From Prochlorococcus sp. AG-409-L21 (GTDB lineage: Bacteria; Cyanobacteriota; Cyanobacteriia; PCC-6307; Cyanobiaceae): 64,000 nucleotides of DNA. A program made the translations under genes and the position numbers. The DNA lies in assembly GCA_003215475.1 (NCBI GenBank), contig QCKH01000004.1, forward strand, positions 19,795 to 83,794. Direction: 5' to 3'. Below the pieces are notes generated by a model, which worked only from the letters and a program-made list of their open reading frames with translations, did not search any database and was not told where the DNA came from. Below, piece by piece: positions 20,386 through 60,084 of this stretch (positions are counted from its first letter, which is position 1; each line of letters starts with the position of its first letter).

Positions 20386-20452
20386 GTAGACACGCAAGAC
20401 TTAAAATCTTGTTCCCATTTGGGAGTGCGGGTTCGATTCCCGCCCCGAGTAC
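20368..20452 (+). tRNA. tRNA-Leu (anticodon TAA)
   Basis: GCTCGGG/CCCGAGT acceptor, long variable arm, CTTAAAA anticodon loop, GGTTCGATTCC T-arm. Confidence 0.9.
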
Positions 20453-20457
20453 ATATT

Positions 20458-20531
20458 GGACCGGTAGCTCAGCTGGATAGAGCATCTGCCTTCTAAGCAG
20501 ACGGTCGAAGGTTCGAATCCTTCCCGGTTCA
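20458..20531 (+). tRNA. tRNA-Arg (anticodon TCT)
   Basis: GGACCGG/CCGGTTC acceptor, TCTGC-CTTCTAA-GCAGA anticodon arm, GGTTCGAATCC T-arm. Confidence 0.92.
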
Positions 20532-24596: not shown

Positions 24597-26978
24597 ATGG
24601 AAAATCAATTTGAAGTGGTTAGAACAAAAAAAATAGTAGAAGTTCCGAGTAACGCACAAATAAGGGTAGATTGGCAAGATTACCCTGAAAATAGAACATT
24701 AGAAACGATCAATAGAGTTAAAACTTATTTTTCGGATAAGTATGGTTTACCTAAATCATCCATCAAAATTAATTTTATACCGATTTTAAAAAATAGTGTG
24801 GGTAAAGTAGTAGACATCACCGATGGATTGATAGATAATATAATGGACACCGCATATCAAAGAAAATTATTTACTCAGTGGTTAGAAATAAATGGAGTTG
24901 ATATAGATTTTGATCGGTTATGTAGATTAGACGAAAAAGTTAATGATGTATTAGTAAATTTAGGAGAAGAAGATATAAGATATAGGAGATGGAGTATAAA
25001 TAGGTTATGGATTGATAATTTTTTATCTTTTGGTGGTGATAACATAGTGGATTATAATAATCTTAAAGGGTTAACTATAGTGAATTCATTACCAGCCAAT
25101 CAAGGTGGTAAAACAATTTTTAGTATTGATTCTTTACTATTCTTATTTTTTGGTAAGACAACTAAAACTGATACTGCCGCTGAAATATTTAATACATTTA
25201 CTGATAAAAACGAAGTGGTAGTGGGAGGCGAAATCAATATTGATGGTGAAGAATATATTATTGAACGTAAATTATTTAGGAAAAAAACTAAAACAGGTAA
25301 TTATAAAACATCTTCTGAATTAAATTTCTATAGAGTTTTATCAGATGGTAGTCACGAAAATTTAGAGGGTGAACAACGAAGAGAAACTGATAAATTAATT
25401 AGTGAAACTATAGGTACGTTTGATGATTTTATGTTAACTATTGTTGCAACTGCAAAAAATTTAGAAGATTTATTAGAAACCAAACCAACACAAAGAGGAA
25501 GGTTGTTAACTAAATTTATTGGTTTAGAAATTATTGAGAAAAAAGAAGAAATTAATAAGGGTTTAATGTCTGATTTCAAAAGTAAAATGAAATCAAATAT
25601 TCATAATACTAAAGAATTAGAATTTGAAATTGATGATAATTTAGACAAAATAAAAGAAAATAAAAATACAATAAAAGAAAATAATAATAAATTATTAAAA
25701 ATAGATGAAGAGATCGCTGAAGCCAATAATAAAAAAGAAGTGTTATTATCAGAAAAATATGTTATTGATGATGAAGTAAGTAGTGTAAACCCTAAAACTT
25801 TAAAGGACGAAATAGGTTCATTAACAGAAGAGGGTGTAACTAAGAAAAAATCTTTAGATAAGATAGTAAAAGATATTAGTAAGATAGGTAAGGTGGAGTA
25901 TGATGAAGATACTCATGAAGAATTGAGACTGGAAGAAAAAGATTTATTGTTGAGAGAAAGTAAAGAGGAGAGTAATAAAGAAAGAAAAGAGTTATTAATT
26001 AAGAATTTAGAAGAGGGTGAAACATGTCCTACATGTAAAAGAGCGTTAGATGATGTAGATCATAGTAAAGAGATAAAAGCGGAAAAGGAAAATTTAAAAA
26101 CCATCAAAGGTTTAATAAAAGAAATACAAAAAGATTTAGGGATAACAATTAAGTCTTTAGATAAACAAAACAACCTAAAAAATATTTCTGATGAAAAAGA
26201 TAAATTAGAACTAAGTAGAGATAGATTAGAAGTAGAGATAGAAGGTTTAAGGGTAGATTTAAAAGAAAAAATGAATCTACAAAAGAACTATGAACGTAAT
26301 ATTGAGTATATTGAAAAGAATAGAAACTTAGAAAGTAAAATATTGGGGTACAATCAACTCTTAGAGAAGTTAAATAAAAAAAGAGATAGTGTTAGAAATG
26401 AAATACAAGACTTAAAAAATGATAATAAAGTTAAAAAAGAAATAAACACCAAAAACAAACTATTAATTCAACAAATATTGAGAGAAGAGGAAGTATTAAA
26501 AATATTTGAAATATATAATAGGATGATTGGTAAAAACGGTATATCTAAGTTGGTTTTATCTTCAGTAATACCTATTATAAATTATGAGTTAGATAGGTTA
26601 TTAGATGAAGTATGTGATTTTCAAATACAATTAGAGATTAATGATAAAAATGAAGTAGATTTTAATATAGTTAAAAAAGACGTAACCAAAAAGTTAAAAT
26701 CAGGATCAGGATTAGAAACAACGTTAGCATCTTTAGCACTTAGATGTGTATTAGGTAGAATTTCTACGCTACCAAAACCAAATATTATCGTCTTTGATGA
26801 GGTGTTAGGTAAAGTTGCGAATATAAATTTAGATTATGTTAAAATATTTTTTGATAAGATAAAAAAGATGTATGAGGTGATTTTACTCATAACACATAAC
26901 CCTATCACGCAAGATTGGGGTGACAAAATTATCACTATTGAAAAAAATAATGACGTTTCGTCATTGCAAATCAAATAA
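24597..26978 (+). CDS. Recombination nuclease ATPase subunit (T4 gp46/SbcC/Rad50-like)
   Basis: Walker A-like NQGGKTIFSID, central coiled coil with CPTC zinc hook, Walker B region PNIIVFDEVLG. Confidence 0.88.
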   Translation: MENQFEVVRTKKIVEVPSNAQIRVDWQDYPENRTLETINRVKTYFSDKYGLPKSSIKINFIPILKNSVGKVVDITDGLIDNIMDTAYQRKLFTQWLEINGVDIDFDRLCRLDEKVNDVLVNLGEEDIRYRRWSINRLWIDNFLSFGGDNIVDYNNLKGLTIVNSLPANQGGKTIFSIDSLLFLFFGKTTKTDTAAEIFNTFTDKNEVVVGGEINIDGEEYIIERKLFRKKTKTGNYKTSSELNFYRVLSDGSHENLEGEQRRETDKLISETIGTFDDFMLTIVATAKNLEDLLETKPTQRGRLLTKFIGLEIIEKKEEINKGLMSDFKSKMKSNIHNTKELEFEIDDNLDKIKENKNTIKENNNKLLKIDEEIAEANNKKEVLLSEKYVIDDEVSSVNPKTLKDEIGSLTEEGVTKKKSLDKIVKDISKIGKVEYDEDTHEELRLEEKDLLLRESKEESNKERKELLIKNLEEGETCPTCKRALDDVDHSKEIKAEKENLKTIKGLIKEIQKDLGITIKSLDKQNNLKNISDEKDKLELSRDRLEVEIEGLRVDLKEKMNLQKNYERNIEYIEKNRNLESKILGYNQLLEKLNKKRDSVRNEIQDLKNDNKVKKEINTKNKLLIQQILREEEVLKIFEIYNRMIGKNGISKLVLSSVIPIINYELDRLLDEVCDFQIQLEINDKNEVDFNIVKKDVTKKLKSGSGLETTLASLALRCVLGRISTLPKPNIIVFDEVLGKVANINLDYVKIFFDKIKKMYEVILLITHNPITQDWGDKIITIEKNNDVSSLQIK

Positions 26979-45601: not shown

Positions 45602-46300
45602 ATGGAAGGGAAGAATAAAATATTAATAATTGGTGTGGATAAAGAAATACACACATCAATTACCAAACATTTCGACACGTCAAATTTTGAATGTGTATGT
45701 GTGGTACATGGAAAAGAAGGTTTAACTAAAATTAGGGAAGCTAGGTTTGATATTATTATATTAGATGAAAAATTAGTAGATATTAGTGGGTTAGATTTAT
45801 GTCAAACTATACGAATTGAAGATCAAAAAACCCCTATCTTATACATAAGTTATCATAACGATGAAGAAAGAAAAATTGAAGTTTTAAAAAATGGTGCTAA
45901 CGATTATCTAATAAAACCTTTAAATTATTTAGAAATTTTTTATAAAGTTAATAACTATATTAGGTTATTAGGTAAGTCCACTAACAATGTAATAAGTGAT
46001 AAAACTGAAATTGGAAATCATATTATTGATTTTAAATCTTTTGTAGTAAATGATACAAGTGGTGTCGAACAAAGGTTAACCCAAAGACAGGTTAAGTTAT
46101 TAAAATTACTAATTAGTAAAAAGAATGAAGTGGTATCTAGAGAAGAGATATTAGAAAAAATTTGGGGTTACGATGTATATATTAAAACAAGGACAATTGA
46201 TAATGTAATATTATCATTAAGAAAAATATTTGAAAAAGATTTAACACCAAACACTTATTTTAAATCAGTGAGAGGTGTCGGTTATAAATTAACTATTTAA
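45602..46300 (+). CDS. OmpR-family-like response regulator (REC + winged helix)
   Basis: REC: ILIIGVDKE…FDIIILDEKLVDISGLDL…DYLIKPLN; C-term wHTH LTQRQVKLLKLLISKKNEVVSREEILEKIWGYDVYIKTRTIDNVILSLRKIFEKD…FKSVRGVGYKL. Confidence 0.9.
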   Translation: MEGKNKILIIGVDKEIHTSITKHFDTSNFECVCVVHGKEGLTKIREARFDIIILDEKLVDISGLDLCQTIRIEDQKTPILYISYHNDEERKIEVLKNGANDYLIKPLNYLEIFYKVNNYIRLLGKSTNNVISDKTEIGNHIIDFKSFVVNDTSGVEQRLTQRQVKLLKLLISKKNEVVSREEILEKIWGYDVYIKTRTIDNVILSLRKIFEKDLTPNTYFKSVRGVGYKLTI

Positions 46301-46312
46301 AAACCTAAAAAA

Positions 46313-46386
46313 GGACTGGTAGTTCAGTTGGTTAGAATACCTGCCTGTCACGCAGGGGGTCGCGAGTTCGAGTCTCGTCCAGTCCG
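46313..46386 (+). tRNA. tRNA-Asp (anticodon GTC)
   Basis: GGACTGG/CCAGTCC acceptor, CTGTCAC anticodon loop, GAGTTCGAGTC T-arm. Confidence 0.92.
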
Positions 46387-46417
46387 CAAAAAAAAATTAA
46401 AAAAAATTAAAAAAAAA

Positions 46418-46492: not shown

Positions 46493-47953
46493 ATGGAAAA
46501 TTCGTACACAAGATGGTTAGAAATTCAAGAAGAAATGGAAAATAAAACTCCGTTAACAGAGAATGGTATGACAACTAATGATACTACATTAGATTCTTGT
46601 GTGGATTTATTTTTTTCCATTGGTGCGATGAGAGGAAAGAATAAAATTAGGTTAATTGAGAAATTTTCCAAAGCATATTCTGAGAACCCTTTAATTGCAA
46701 CTAAAATCCTTTTTTGGGTTAGAGATGTGAGACAAGGTGCTGGTGAGAGACAAATCTTTAGAGATGTAATTTCTCATTTAGTAAAACTTGCACCACAAGT
46801 TGTTAGTAAAAACACTCACCTTATTTCAGAATATGGAAGATGGGATGATGTATTCACATTAATTGGTACAGAACTAGAAGAGATGGTTATTGATTTAATT
46901 ATCACTGCATTAAAAAATGAAGATGGTTTATGTGCTAAGTGGATGCCACGTAAGGGTGTGGTATTTAACAAAGTAAGAAAGTCGTTGAGGGTAACACCTA
47001 AACAACTTAGAAAAATGTTAGTTGGTTTAACTAATGTGGTAGAAACTAAGATGTGTGCTAATGAATGGGATAAAATCGAATATTCGAAAATACCTTCTTT
47101 AGCATCAGCTAGGTATCAGAAATCTTTTTGGAGAAATGATTCCGAAAGATATGGTAAATTCGTAGAAGACCTTAAAAATGGTGTAACTACAGTAAATAGT
47201 GGGGCTTTATATCCTTATGATATATTGAAGTCACTATACGCTGGGGGTGATGAAACTGTTTCACAAAAACAGTGGGAATCATTACCAAATTTTATGGAAG
47301 GAAATGAGGAAAAGGTTTTACCTATGGTGGACGTTTCAGGATCAATGAATTGTCCGGCAGGTAACAACCCCAACCTTACTTGTATGGATGTAGCAATATC
47401 TTTAGGGATATATATATCTGAAAGAAATGAAGGGTCATTTAAAGATGCGTTTTTAACTTTCTCTTCTTCTCCTCAATTACAATTTTTATCTGAGGGTAGT
47501 TTAAAAGATAAATTACGACAGTTAAAATCTGCAGATTGGGGTATGAGTACTAATATTGAAGCTACTTTTGATTTATTATTAAATCAGGCGGTAGCACACA
47601 ATATACCACAGGCAGAGATGCCAACTAAAATTTTAATCTTATCTGATATGGAATTCGATGCCGCAACTTCTAAACGTTGGGGTAATGATGTTCCAGAATG
47701 GAATCCTACGGTTATGGATTTAATAAAAACAAAATACGAAGAGGCGGGTTATAAACTACCTACCATCGTATATTGGAATTTAAATGCTAGAACTGATAAT
47801 TTTCCAGTCAGACAAGATGAAATGAACACCGCATTAATTTCAGGATTTAGTCCTTCAATATTGAAATCAGTACTTAATGGGGAAAATTTAACTCCTTATT
47901 CGGTAATGATGAAAACTATTGAAAGTGACAGATATGAAAATATTACGGTATAG
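46493..47953 (+). CDS. DUF2828-type / Ro60 (TROVE)-like protein with vWA MIDAS
   Basis: TENGMTTNDTTLDSCVDLFFSIGAMRGKNKIRLIEKFSKAYSENPLIATKILFWVRDVRQGAGERQIFRDVISHL (HEAT-like N-term) and VLPMVDVSGSMNCP (DxSxS MIDAS). Confidence 0.75.
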   Translation: MENSYTRWLEIQEEMENKTPLTENGMTTNDTTLDSCVDLFFSIGAMRGKNKIRLIEKFSKAYSENPLIATKILFWVRDVRQGAGERQIFRDVISHLVKLAPQVVSKNTHLISEYGRWDDVFTLIGTELEEMVIDLIITALKNEDGLCAKWMPRKGVVFNKVRKSLRVTPKQLRKMLVGLTNVVETKMCANEWDKIEYSKIPSLASARYQKSFWRNDSERYGKFVEDLKNGVTTVNSGALYPYDILKSLYAGGDETVSQKQWESLPNFMEGNEEKVLPMVDVSGSMNCPAGNNPNLTCMDVAISLGIYISERNEGSFKDAFLTFSSSPQLQFLSEGSLKDKLRQLKSADWGMSTNIEATFDLLLNQAVAHNIPQAEMPTKILILSDMEFDAATSKRWGNDVPEWNPTVMDLIKTKYEEAGYKLPTIVYWNLNARTDNFPVRQDEMNTALISGFSPSILKSVLNGENLTPYSVMMKTIESDRYENITV

Positions 47954-47974
47954 TTCTTTGAAATAAAATGGTAT

Positions 47975-48447
47975 AAGGAATAATTGCAGCAAATTTAATT
48001 TTTATTAAACTATGCAAAAACCAGAAGGAAGGGGTAATGTGTTAGTCGCCCCACCTACCAAAAGTTATTAAACCGATTGTTCGGGGGACATAACAGAGTA
48101 GGTAAAAAAAGACTGACAAACGATTCCGTTACCATTATGATGTGAAACGAATGGTTTCTGCAAACTCTAACTTTAAACTAGAAATGTAGATCAGAGGTTT
48201 TATTCTCCCTTTACCCAAAATTTATAAAGGGAGCAACCATAGGTGAGGTTTAAACAGGGAAATTCCCTACCTTGAGGTTGTAAAACATACCTTTTGGTTT
48301 TGTCACAAATAAATAAACGACACTCAGTGGGGCTGAGTTAACACTCTACCGTAGGGACGGTCATTACGTTAAATAAAAGCCGGATCCCCATTCCGACATC
48401 AACAAATTAAAAGAGGATATTTTAACTAGTATCCTCTTTTTTTTTAT
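47975..48447 (+). ncRNA. Candidate large structured ncRNA downstream of the Ro60-like gene (boundaries approximate)
   Basis: No ORF; nested helices 48013-22/48153-62, 48033-39/48127-133, 48040-47/48111-118, 48053-58/48098-103, 48064-68/48090-94, 48073-76/48081-84; 3' hairpins 48205-213/48225-233, 48234-238/48276-280, 48322-327/48333-338, 48348-352/48357-361, 48381-384/48392-395; ends in intrinsic terminator. Confidence 0.75.
48411..48447 (+). terminator. Intrinsic terminator of the ncRNA
   Basis: AAGAGGATA…TATCCTCTT followed by T-tract. Confidence 0.88.
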
Positions 48448-48480
48448 CATAACTTTAGTATATTTAATAATAAAAATATT

Positions 48481-50028: not shown

Positions 50029-51057
50029 ATGAGTAAAGATTATTATAACGTATTAGGTGTAACCAAAAACTCTAGTGAAAAAGAGATAAAAAAGGCGTAT
50101 AGAAATTTATCTAAAAAATACCATCCAGACTTAAACCCTGATAATGCACAAGCAGAAGAAAAGTTTAAATCTGTGGCGGAAGCATATGATGTACTATCCA
50201 ATCCCGATAAAAAGAAAAATTACGATATGTTTGGACATGCAGAAGGTAGACGTGGAAACCCTTTCAGTAATGGTGGGTTTGATATGGGAGATATTTTTAA
50301 TTCTTTTTTCGGTGCAGATGATAACCCCTTCAATTCAGGTAGGAGGAAAAAAAGAGTGGTTAGAGGAACAGATATTAGAATTAATTTAAAGTTAACTTTA
50401 GAAGATGTATTTAATGGGATTCATAAAAAAATAAAATATAGGAGAAATGATTTTTGTGGGACCTGCGAAGGAACCGGAGGTAAATCCAGTATGTGTCAGA
50501 GTTGTGGGGGTACTGGACAAATTACTAGGATTAGTAATACTCCGTTTGGCAGAATCCAAAATACCGTACTATGTCCTACATGTATGGGTGAAGGTAAAAT
50601 AATTACTGATCCGTGTAAAAAATGTACAGGTAACGGGGTTAATTTAACCGAAGAAACTGTCGAATTCGATATACCCACAGGTGTGATGGAAGGAGAGAAT
50701 TTAATAATAAAAACTAAGGGTAATGCGATTAAAGGTGGGTTAAATGGGGATTTAATCATTAATATTATTGAAATACCTCATGATACATTTACAAGAAAAA
50801 ATCAAGATATATACCAAAGAATAAAATTAAAATATAAAGATTTAGTTTTAGGAACACCTTACGAATTAGATACCTTAGATGGTAAAATTAGAATAAATAT
50901 AAAAGAAGGTACTGAAATCGGACATATTTTAAGAGTACCTAAAAAAGGAATAACTAAAGATAAATATACTGGTGATATGATGGTTGAAGTATGGTTAGAT
51001 ATCCCTAAAAACATAGACGAAGAAAATAAAAAAATAATTCAGTCTTTAAATATTTGA
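50029..51057 (+). CDS. dnaJ: DnaJ-like chaperone
   Basis: J domain with HPD (KYHPDLNP), G/F region, four CxxCxGxG-type repeats. Confidence 0.93.
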
Positions 51058-51989: not shown

Positions 51990-53048
51990 ATGTTAGTAAA
52001 ATTAGAATACATTTGGTTAGACGGTTATAAACCAGAATCTAATCTAAGAAGTAAGACAAAAGTGTGGGATTTTGATCCCAATAAAGACCCCAAATATAAT
52101 GTATTAAGAGAAAATGGGCCGTGTCCTGAAGAATTACCTATATGGTCATTTGATGGGTCTTCCACTCAACAAGCAGAAGGAAACTATTCAGATTGTTTAT
52201 TAAAACCAGTAAGGGTGGTTGCCGATCCTAAAAGAAAACAAGCATTTTTAGTTATGTGTGAAGTTTTAAATCCAGATGGTACTCCCCATATATCTAATAC
52301 CCGACATCTTATTAACGAAGATGTTAATGTATGGTTTGGTTTTGAACAAGAATATACATTAATTAAAAATGGTAAACCACTAGGTTTCCCTAAAGATGGG
52401 AATCCTGATCCACAAGGAATGTATTATTGTTCTGTAGGTACTAGAAATGTAAATGGTAGAGAAATTGCAGAAGAACATTTAGATACGTGTTTATCTGCGG
52501 GGTTAAAACTAACCGGAATCAATGCAGAAGTTTTATTAGGTCAATGGGAATACCAATTATTAGGTAAAGGAAATAAACGAGCAGCGGATGATTTATGGTT
52601 AAGTAGATATCTATTACACCGCATATGTGAAAAATACAGTGTACATGTAGAATTTCACCCTAAACCTGTATTAGGTGATTGGAATGGTAGTGGACTACAC
52701 ACCAATTTTTCTAATACTGAAATGAGAGATAATGGTGGAGAAGAATTATTTAGAGGTATATGTGAAAAGTTAAGAAGTAGACATGCAGAATTTATAGATA
52801 ACTATGGTTCATCTAATGAATTAAGACTAACAGGTGAATATGAAACTGCAGATATAAAAGATTTTAGTTATGGGATTTCAGATAGAGGATCCTCAATTAG
52901 GATACCGGTGGGTGTTGTAAATGATGATTGGAAGGGGTATTTGGAAGATAGGAGACCAGCATCTAATGCTGACCCCTATAAAATTACTAAGTTAATTAGT
53001 GAAACCATTTCTTCATTTAATAAAGTAGAAACCGTTTTAAATACATAA
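51990..53048 (+). CDS. glnII: Glutamine synthetase, type II (GlnII/eukaryotic-like)
   Basis: WSFDGSSTQQ, FGFEQEYTL, DWNGSGLHTNFS, SDRGSSIRIP, YLEDRRPASNADPYKIT motifs; full-length 352 aa. Confidence 0.92.
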   Translation: MLVKLEYIWLDGYKPESNLRSKTKVWDFDPNKDPKYNVLRENGPCPEELPIWSFDGSSTQQAEGNYSDCLLKPVRVVADPKRKQAFLVMCEVLNPDGTPHISNTRHLINEDVNVWFGFEQEYTLIKNGKPLGFPKDGNPDPQGMYYCSVGTRNVNGREIAEEHLDTCLSAGLKLTGINAEVLLGQWEYQLLGKGNKRAADDLWLSRYLLHRICEKYSVHVEFHPKPVLGDWNGSGLHTNFSNTEMRDNGGEELFRGICEKLRSRHAEFIDNYGSSNELRLTGEYETADIKDFSYGISDRGSSIRIPVGVVNDDWKGYLEDRRPASNADPYKITKLISETISSFNKVETVLNT

Positions 53049-54343: not shown

Positions 54344-55045
54344 ATGATAAATTTTGATTATTACAGTGAATTTAAAGATTATGCAACAAAACATTTAGGT
54401 GTGACTGGGTTGCAATTTCATTATTGGGAAAAATTACAAGATAGAATTTATTCTCATAATGCTGCACTAACGCCATATATTCTTGAAGAAAGAGAAATGA
54501 GAGTTACACAAATGGATATTTTTTCTAGATTAATGATGGACAGAATTCTATGGGTTGCTGGACCTGTTAACGATAATATGTCTACTGTCGTACAAGCACA
54601 ATTAATGTTTTTAGATAATGTACAAGTAAAGGACATTACAATGCATGTGGATAGCCCAGGTGGAAGTGTAAAATCAGGATTATCAATGGTAGATGTTATG
54701 AATTATGTTGCATCAGATATAATAACTATTAATACAGGGATGGCAGCGTCTATGGGGTCTATCTTACTGGGTGCAGGTACAAAAGGGAAAAGATTCTCAC
54801 TTAAAAATAGTAGAGTTATGTTACATCAAGTTTCGTCAGGTGCACAAGGTAACATACAAGATATTAGAATATCTTTAGCAGAAGCTGAAAAATATAATAC
54901 TTTATTATTTGAATTATTGGGTAAATATTGTAATAAAAAACCAAAAGAAGTATTAAAATTTGCTAGTAGAGATCAGTGGTTAGATTCTACTGAAGCATTA
55001 GAATATGGAATTATTGATGAAATAATTGAAAAATTGGAAAAATAA
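54344..55045 (+). CDS. clpP: ClpP-like serine protease
   Basis: MHVDSPGGSVKSGLSMVDVMNYV…TGMAASMGSILLGAG…VMLHQVSSGAQG. Confidence 0.9.
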   Translation: MINFDYYSEFKDYATKHLGVTGLQFHYWEKLQDRIYSHNAALTPYILEEREMRVTQMDIFSRLMMDRILWVAGPVNDNMSTVVQAQLMFLDNVQVKDITMHVDSPGGSVKSGLSMVDVMNYVASDIITINTGMAASMGSILLGAGTKGKRFSLKNSRVMLHQVSSGAQGNIQDIRISLAEAEKYNTLLFELLGKYCNKKPKEVLKFASRDQWLDSTEALEYGIIDEIIEKLEK

Positions 55046-59163: not shown

Positions 59164-60084
59164 ATGAATACTTTAGATAAACAATATAAAGATTTACTTC
59201 GTACTATATTAGAATATGGTGCAACCAAAAAAGACAGGACAGGAACGGGTACTAAATCTATTTTTGGTTATACTATACGACATAATATGCAAGAAGGGTT
59301 TCCCTTACTCACTACTAAAAAGATGGCTTGGAAACAAATTGTGACCGAATTATTATGGTTTCTTAGAGGAGATACTAATATTAAATTTTTACATGAGAAT
59401 GATTGTCATATTTGGGATGGAGACTATAAAAAGAGTGGGAGAGATGATGGAGAATTGGGGCCTATTTATGGTAAACAATGGAGAGACTGGGGAGGTATCG
59501 ATCAAATAGACTATATTATTAGAGAAATTAATAATACTCCAGATAGTAGAAGATTAATGGTTAATGCGTGGAATGTTTCAGATTTAGACAAGATGACTTT
59601 ACCACCATGTCATTATGGATTCCAACTTTATACTAGGGATTTAAATTTAGATGAAAGAATAGATTATTTTAATACACACAGTAAGGCATTAAATAAATCG
59701 CTAGATTATCATCATATACATATGGATAGTTTGAGAGTACCTAAAAAAGGAATATCATTGTTATGGAATCAAAGATCAGTAGACACATTTTTGGGTTTAC
59801 CTTTTAATATTGCGTCTTACGGTCTTTTATTAGAAATAATTGCCAAAGAAGTTAAAATGATACCTTTACAATTAATTGGTAATTTGGGTGATGTACATCT
59901 ATATAAAAATCATATAGAACAAGCAAAAGAACAGTTAAGTAGAAATTCATTTCCTTTACCTAGTTTGTGTTTAGATTATAGAGATGGTGAATATAACAAA
60001 AATTTAAAAGAATTTGTGGTAGAAGATTTCCAATTATTTGGGTATAAATCACATAAAACAATAAAAGCAGTTTTAAGTAATTAG
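59164..60084 (+). CDS. thyA: Thymidylate synthase
   Basis: YKDLLRTILEYGATKKDRTGTGT…LPPCHYGFQLY…QRSVDTFLGLPFNIASYGLL. Confidence 0.95.
   Translation: MNTLDKQYKDLLRTILEYGATKKDRTGTGTKSIFGYTIRHNMQEGFPLLTTKKMAWKQIVTELLWFLRGDTNIKFLHENDCHIWDGDYKKSGRDDGELGPIYGKQWRDWGGIDQIDYIIREINNTPDSRRLMVNAWNVSDLDKMTLPPCHYGFQLYTRDLNLDERIDYFNTHSKALNKSLDYHHIHMDSLRVPKKGISLLWNQRSVDTFLGLPFNIASYGLLLEIIAKEVKMIPLQLIGNLGDVHLYKNHIEQAKEQLSRNSFPLPSLCLDYRDGEYNKNLKEFVVEDFQLFGYKSHKTIKAVLSN

What the first reader, a model, noticed from the sequence alone, without database searches (positions are those of the whole stretch)
47954..48450. Candidate large structured ncRNA immediately downstream of a phage Ro60-like gene
About 0.5 kb with no ORF in an otherwise tightly packed genome, appearing less AT-rich than its surroundings. 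By eye it forms one long nested 5' arm: TGCAAAAACC/GGTTTCTGCA (48013-22/48153-62, one mismatch), GGTAATG/CGTTACC (48033-39/48127-133), TGTTAGTC/GACTGACA (48040-47/48111-118), ACCTAC/GTAGGT (48053-58/48098-103), GTTAT/ATAAC (48064-68/48090-94), CCGA-TTGT-TCGG (48073-84). A 3' domain follows, with a 9-bp hairpin CTCCCTTTA/TAAAGGGAG (48205-233), a composite hairpin CAACC..AGGT..AGGGA/TCCCT..ACCT..GGTTG (48234-280), three small hairpins and an intrinsic terminator. Established: bacterial Ro60 orthologs bind Y RNAs usually encoded nearby, at roughly 100 nt; large phage RNAs such as GOLLD and ROOL also exist. Inference: an undescribed phage Ro-like RNP whose RNA is much larger than known Y RNAs.
Basis: partly seen in the sequence, partly recalled or inferred. 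Interest (0 to 1): 0.93.

Follow-up and report, generated by a model that had tools for sequence, protein, structure and literature searches.

The report
Phage Ro60 protein's modular partner RNA
The non-coding stretch next to this phage's Ro60-like RNA-binding protein is a real structured RNA made of two modules, and the same module signature, a closing stem followed by CAGCAA, lies beside Ro60-like genes in phages of very different bacteria, so phages appear to carry a widespread and largely undescribed Ro60–Y-RNA-like machine with interchangeable RNA parts.

Summary
In detail: 47954-48480 has no gene, is GC-richer than the window and folds far better than chance (z -4.2). It is not in Rfam. 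The neighbouring DUF2828 gene models as a full-length Ro60 fold; the ten best PDB matches are all Ro60/TROVE. The region is better read as two tandem modules (47970-48133 and 48149-48393) plus a terminator, not one long nested arm. Each module is a closing helix followed within a few bases by CRGCAA (CTGCAA in the second), with G directly or one base after the 3' strand. This signature recurs beside DUF2828 genes in phages of Bacteroidota, Vibrio, enterobacteria, Campylobacter, Listeria, Staphylococcus, Enterococcus, Bacillus and mycobacteria, singly or in arrays. A strict search gave 103 hits in DUF2828 loci, all on the gene's strand, 1 in shuffled DNA, and 1 locus of 117 other viral contigs. 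Payloads between the arms vary freely; 29 of 98 contain a tRNA T-arm and at least 12 are circularly permuted tRNAs like the YrlA Y RNA, but on a different closing stem. Best explanation: Y-RNA-like partners of phage Ro60; the window holds an unusually large two-module, non-tRNA form. Binding and function are untested.

The parts
46493..47953 (+). Ro60-like protein (DUF2828 + DUF7788 vWA), 486 aa, intact MIDAS residues (DVSGSM, T353, D385)
   Evidence: Pfam PF11443/PF25043, PHROG 850 'RNA-binding protein', AF2 pLDDT 84.7 with top ten PDB matches all Ro60/TROVE, MIDAS residues invariant in 38 relatives
47970..48133 (+). RNA module 1 (164 nt): closing helix GGTA..GGAAT / ATTCC..TACC, motif AATTGCAGCAAATTT directly inside, inner arm of stacked helices
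   Evidence: unconstrained MFE; conserved position and motif in relatives; covarying inner helices
47977..47991 (+). signature of module 1: stem strand GGAAT followed by AATTGCAGCA(A)
48040..48118 (+). module 1 inner arm TGTTAGTC/GACTGACA, ACCTAC/GTAGGT, GTTAT/ATAAC, CCGA-TTGT-TCGG
   Evidence: z -3.44; last three helices with compensatory changes in 6 relatives
48149..48393 (+). RNA module 2 (245 nt): closing helix GAATGG/CCATTC, motif TTTCTGCAAAC inside, payload GTTTTA/TAAAAC three-way element and small hairpins
   Evidence: 10-sequence alignment A3 and consensus fold, 41 pairs, 13 with two-sided changes
48205..48233 (+). hairpin CTCCCTTTA/TAAAGGGAG of module 2
   Evidence: MFE; replaced by a similar hairpin in relatives
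48234..48280 (+). composite hairpin CAACC..GGTTG of module 2, the most conserved payload part
   Evidence: AU/GC exchange at one pair, further two-sided changes in the nested helices
48409..48445 (+). intrinsic terminator AAAGAGGATA..TATCCTCTTT + T-run
   Evidence: z -5.90; conserved in relatives
46313..46387 (+). tRNA-Asp(GTC) directly upstream of the Ro gene

Best explanation
47967-48445 encodes the RNA partner of the phage Ro60-like protein encoded just upstream: a Y-RNA-like RNA with two modules. In each module the closing helix and the CAGCAA-type bulge or loop just inside it form the presumed Ro-docking handle, and the variable interior is a payload held out by the protein. By analogy with bacterial Ro-Y RNPs, the RNA either gates the Ro ring or tethers a client (nuclease, RNA-repair enzyme, ribosome or tRNA factor) so that damaged or structured RNAs are handled in the infected cell. 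In this phage the RNA follows the stop codon by about 14 nt and ends at a strong terminator, so it is probably co-transcribed with the Ro mRNA. Shown here: the structure, the conserved signature, its co-location and co-orientation with Ro60-fold genes across phages, and tRNA mimicry of some payloads. Inferred: physical binding to Ro, which part is the handle, processing, and function.
For: Ro60 fold of the protein: top ten PDB hits all Ro60/TROVE, E 1e-9 to 4e-7, full-length alignments, 12-17% identity. Signature hits: 103 in 80 DUF2828 loci (some near-duplicate), all on the gene strand, 1 in shuffled DNA; of 119 viral contigs fetched only by the 5' half of the signature, 3 keep the stem, and 2 of these carry DUF2828. 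In whole phage genomes the hits pile up at the Ro gene: A511 3 of 3 and CP81 1 of 1 just upstream, LeBron 3 just downstream, Felix-type CL1 4 of 6 among tRNAs 0.3-1.1 kb downstream. Closing stems vary freely at all 7 pairs (modules were selected for pairing). 29 of 98 payloads hold a T-arm (0.7 expected from shuffles), at least 12 are permuted tRNAs, matching Rfam YrlA below cut-off, full length in some cases. Published RNA-seq of a P100-like Listeria phage found very abundant non-coding transcripts within 2 kb upstream of its Ro homologue, same direction (PMC12282133).
Against: No binding, transcript or mutant data for this phage. The window's own closing stems are short (4+5 and 6 bp) and its second core reads CTGCAA; they rest on homology to relatives. 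Neither window module is tRNA-like. The covariance model R1 gives the window only 17.4 bits (E 0.19). A few DUF2828 loci (for example L079) show no module in the DNA held. The location downstream of the stop codon also fits a cis-regulatory 3' UTR.
Confidence: 0.77

Rival explanations
1. Cis-regulatory 3' UTR of the Ro gene: the structured region stabilises or autoregulates the Ro mRNA and is not an independent RNA.
For: It starts 14 nt after the stop codon; in L007-type phages the closing helix starts 1 nt after the stop, leaving no room for a separate promoter between them.
Against: In most other phages the modules lie upstream of the gene, several in a row with different payloads, or among tRNA genes; payloads mimic tRNA.
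Confidence: 0.12
2. Stand-alone phage ncRNA of GOLLD/ROOL type (large ornate RNA, possibly oligomeric) unrelated to Ro binding.
For: About 480 nt, elaborate fold, phage tRNA context.
Against: No Rfam hit; the two-module organisation and the signature shared with 50-nt RNAs beside Ro genes.
Confidence: 0.05
3. The modules are decayed or hypervariable tRNA genes or tRNA-processing debris, and Ro genes merely sit in tRNA islands.
For: 29 of 98 modules contain T-arms and many loci are rich in tRNAs.
Against: 69 of 98 contain no T-arm, the CAGCAA signature and stem-G rule are not tRNA features, permuted order with paired acceptor and D-arm implies selection, and contigs without DUF2828 lack the signature.
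Confidence: 0.05

Closest known systems
YrlA / bacterial Y RNAs (Rfam RF02553; Chen et al. 2014, Sim & Wolin reviews)
   Same: Encoded beside a Ro60 protein; ends pair into a stem; a tRNA-like, circularly permuted domain (T-arm, closed acceptor, D-arm) in at least 12 phage modules; sub-threshold full-length CM matches (45.9 and 39.8 bits).
   Different: Below the 69-bit cut-off; the Rfam YrlA closing stem reads cggCgaAUGCuugg with no CAGCAA; most phage modules, including both in the window, have other payloads; modules occur in arrays.
Mycobacteriophage and Listeria phage putative Y RNAs (Chen 2014 as cited in PMC12282133; CKA15, PMC12282133)
   Same: Same protein family (LeBron gp53 and A511 gp178 are in the same tblastn set) and neighbouring abundant or tRNA-like RNAs.
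   Different: No common signature or array organisation was reported in the text read; the 2025 paper leaves Y RNA as one guess among several.
Ro60-Y RNA RNPs of animals and Deinococcus (RYPER with PNPase)
   Same: Ro60 ring fold with vWA MIDAS; RNA stem expected to bind the protein, payload as gate or tether.
   Different: 12-17% identity; DUF2828 rather than the Pfam TROVE model; no PNPase link shown.
GOLLD / ROOL large phage RNAs
   Same: Large structured RNA in a phage near tRNA genes.
   Different: No covariance-model match; modular and Ro-linked.

Membership tests
Ro60/TROVE protein fold (for 46493-47953) | HEAT-repeat ring plus vWA domain | tested here: met
   AF2 model, Foldseek top ten PDB hits all Ro60, full-length alignments, TM 0.50-0.60
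Ro60/TROVE protein fold (for 46493-47953) | MIDAS residues DxSxS..T..D | tested here: met
   D280, S282, S284, T353, D385 invariant in 38 relatives
Ro60/TROVE protein fold (for 46493-47953) | binds misfolded RNA ends and Y RNA | not testable with these tools
   needs biochemistry
Phage Ro-linked CAGCAA modules (defined here) | closing helix, CRGCAA within a few nt inside it, G at or one base after the 3' strand, same strand as the Ro gene | tested here: met
   module 1 met (core TTGCAGCAA, ATTCC-G); module 2 met only with the variant core CTGCAA and CCATTC-CG; both stems are shorter than the 7 bp of the strict filter
YrlA (RF02553) | score above gathering cut-off | tested here: not met
   no YrlA match in the region; best phage relatives 45.9 of 69 bits
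YrlA (RF02553) | tRNA-like domain with T-loop and D-loop | tested here: not met
   absent from both window modules; present in at least 12 of 98 modules elsewhere
GOLLD, ROOL, RNase P, tmRNA, group I/II introns | Rfam covariance model match | tested here: not met

The most novel reading that the evidence does not exclude
DUF2828 phages share one undescribed RNP platform: a viral Ro60 that recognises a short common RNA handle (closing helix plus CAGCAA) and displays interchangeable RNA cartridges, from 50-nt hairpins to permuted or acceptor-less tRNA mimics to 245-nt folded domains as in this window, each recruiting or blocking a different client during infection.
Probability: 0.5. Interest if true: 0.92.

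Novelty: new variant of a known kind. Interest (0 to 1): 0.82.

Why it matters
Ro60–Y RNA biology is old and medically important, yet its function in microbes is poorly known. The viral Ro60 gene occurs in 682 phage records, including laboratory phages (KVP40, Felix O1 types, A511/P100, LeBron); a short RNA signature that marks its likely partner RNAs makes the system findable and testable: predicted handle, predicted payloads, predicted co-purification. The tRNA-like payloads come in two topologies (anticodon arm or acceptor stem replaced by the handle), natural examples of modular RNA design.

Tried and rejected
Near-threshold Rfam hits in the region (rli60, snoRNAs) are chance-level. A covariance model of the joined arms (R1) cannot bridge long payloads and was not useful for scanning; own scripts were used instead. 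A looser motif (any stem start, spacer 2-4) raised the background: 99 plus and 7 minus hits in DUF2828 loci against 7-14 per strand in shuffles, so the strict form is quoted. The 5' half of the signature alone is not specific: 116 of 119 contigs found by it lack the stem. Stem covariation in A2 is partly circular because modules were chosen for pairing; the independent support is the count against shuffles, the other contigs, strand bias and whole-genome position. The YrlA hit at window 20426-20483 is an artefact of two adjacent tRNAs. DNA similarity of the region to named phages finds nothing convincing.

Full report
What is there. The intergenic stretch 47954-48480 follows the stop codon of a 486-aa DUF2828/DUF7788 gene and precedes a thioredoxin gene. 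It has no ORF of 50 aa or more, is GC-richer than the window (0.354 for 47954-48450 against 0.286), folds much better than shuffles (z -4.20), and ends in a strong terminator. No Rfam family matches at its gathering score and the best weak hits are chance-level. The window lies in an IMG/VR viral contig of 83.8 kb (L001; G000 C4) with phage replication and lysis genes.

The protein. A structure predicted from 38 relatives taken from the loci (pLDDT 84.7) matches, over its full length, Ro60/TROVE proteins as its ten best PDB hits, among them the Ro60 of Thermus phage phiLo and several Ro autoantigen-RNA complexes, E 1e-9 to 4e-7. Sequence identity is only 12-17%, and a profile search by sequence alone gives weak TROVE hits. 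MIDAS residues are invariant. So the 'Ro60-like' reading is right. tblastn finds the protein in 682 of 50,697 phage records, from KVP40, Felix O1 types, Listeria A511/P100, Campylobacter, Staphylococcus and Enterococcus to mycobacteriophages, where it is already annotated 'Ro-like RNA binding protein'. Overexpressed LeBron gp53 is toxic to its host (PMC13148394).

The RNA in close relatives. Five close relatives (72-79% identical proteins) keep the RNA downstream of the gene; more distant Bacteroidota-type phages keep parts of it. Comparison shows two tandem modules. Module 1, 47970-48133, is closed by GGTA..GGAAT/ATTCC..TACC, which the unconstrained minimum-energy fold also picks. Module 2, 48149-48393, is closed by GAATGG/CCATTC. 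Forcing both costs 1.2 kcal/mol of 126.6. Inner helices ACCTAC/GTAGGT, GTTAT/ATAAC and CCGA/TCGG of module 1 change on both sides in relatives, as do 13 of 41 pairs of module 2.

The shared signature. Just inside each closing helix lies the motif (U)NCRGCAA (CTGCAA in module 2 of the window group), and the 3' strand is followed by G or YG. A structural search (stem of 7 or more pairs, at most 2 nt to UNCRGCAA, G or YG after the 3' strand) of the 80 DUF2828 loci found 103 hits, every one on the coding strand of the gene, against 1 in shuffled sequence (near-duplicate loci included). The window's own modules and many of its Bacteroidota relatives have shorter stems than this filter asks for and are recognised by homology. 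Scanning IMG/VR only for the 5' half, TTTTAGGNNNNNNTNCAGCAA, returned 119 contigs; 3 keep the stem, two of them with 3 and 6 copies, and both carry DUF2828. Modules also sit near the Ro gene in KVP40, S13, BUCT194, CL1, CP81, A511, SEP9, Bacillus 2S-4, Enterococcus ZJGS2, Lak and LeBron. In whole genomes they concentrate there: A511 has 3 hits in 138 kb, all 36-300 nt upstream of the gene; CP81 1 in 132 kb; LeBron 3 of 5 directly downstream; CL1 4 of 6 just downstream among tRNAs; KVP40 3 on the gene strand 3-7 kb upstream amid scattered background. After removing near-duplicates 98 joined arms remain, 39-260 nt long, median 96; all seven stem positions vary by two-sided changes (on 72 of them), bearing in mind that pairing was a selection criterion. 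One of the 98, L211:4298-4336, may be a chance hit.

The payloads. 29 of 98 modules contain a paired T-arm (0.7 expected from shuffles). At least 12 are circularly permuted tRNAs: T-arm, acceptor strand, linker, acceptor strand, D-arm, with 6-7 acceptor pairs, so that the closing helix takes the place of the anticodon arm. Others (L055:4571-4661, L044:2005-2102, L073:4647-4736, L074:4866-4951) have D-like, anticodon-like and T-arms in normal order, with the closing helix in place of the acceptor stem. The permuted form is the architecture of the bacterial Y RNA YrlA, and Rfam's YrlA model matches some of them below its cut-off (45.9 and 39.8 of 69 bits). The terminal stem of the YrlA model has no CAGCAA. 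The remaining payloads, including both in this window, are not tRNA-like.

Interpretation. A set of RNAs that share only their terminal helix and an adjacent motif, lie on the same strand beside a Ro60-fold gene in unrelated phages, and sometimes carry Y-RNA tRNA mimics is best explained as the Y-RNA-like partners of that protein: common handle, variable payload. The window has a large, non-tRNA, two-module example probably made from the Ro transcript; in L007 the closing helix begins 1 nt after the stop codon. What the RNP does is inferred from bacterial Ro-Y systems (gate or tether for RNA decay, repair or quality control), not shown. In A511 'tRNA splicing ligase' and RNA ligase genes follow the Ro gene within a few kb, and an RNA ligase lies close to it in Salmonella phage 7t3, which fits an RNA-repair role.

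Prior knowledge. A Listeria P100-like phage transcriptome found non-coding regions upstream of the Ro homologue to be by far the most abundant phage transcripts, and its authors proposed Y RNAs as one explanation (PMC12282133); whether those regions include the three A511-type modules is not established here. Y RNAs in mycobacteriophages were reported by Chen et al. 2014, which is not held and is known here only through that citation. A survey of jumbo phages notes TROVE proteins in a few of them as an RNA-repair platform (PMC7824862). The library holds few subscription papers, so an earlier description of the motif cannot be excluded.

Noticed in passing
L209:4447-5105 (A511 26143-26801): A gene-free stretch of about 650 nt with a strong promoter-like element, at about the position that in the related phage CKA15 yields the most abundant transcripts (26,236-26,727, PMC12282133). 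It shows no CAGCAA signature: possibly another large phage ncRNA.
   Followed up: partly
L055:4571-4661, L073:4647-4736, L074:4866-4951: RNAs with D-, anticodon- and T-arm-like hairpins in normal order but with the acceptor stem replaced by the Ro-type closing helix.
   Followed up: partly
L207:7713-8512: In a Felix O1-type phage four modules alternate with ordinary tRNA genes, all with AGACC/GGTCT stems, followed by GG.
   Followed up: partly
window 20426-20483: Weak YrlA covariance match is the T-arm of tRNA-Leu followed by the D-arm of tRNA-Arg: tandem tRNAs mimic a permuted tRNA and can mislead Y RNA searches.
   Followed up: yes
window 45602-46300, 50029-51057, 51990-53048, 54344-55045, 59164-60084: Phage carries response regulator, DnaJ, glutamine synthetase, ClpP and thymidylate synthase genes, unusual cargo.
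   Followed up: no
L082 (CALWZW010000018.1): A Clostridia MAG contig carries a 37% identical DUF2828 gene with two modules downstream, probably phage DNA in a bacterial bin.
   Followed up: no
L203:5872-6114: In Cronobacter phage S13 two oversized 'tRNAs' (121 and 113 nt) annotated just downstream of the Ro gene may be Y-like RNAs misannotated as tRNA.
   Followed up: no
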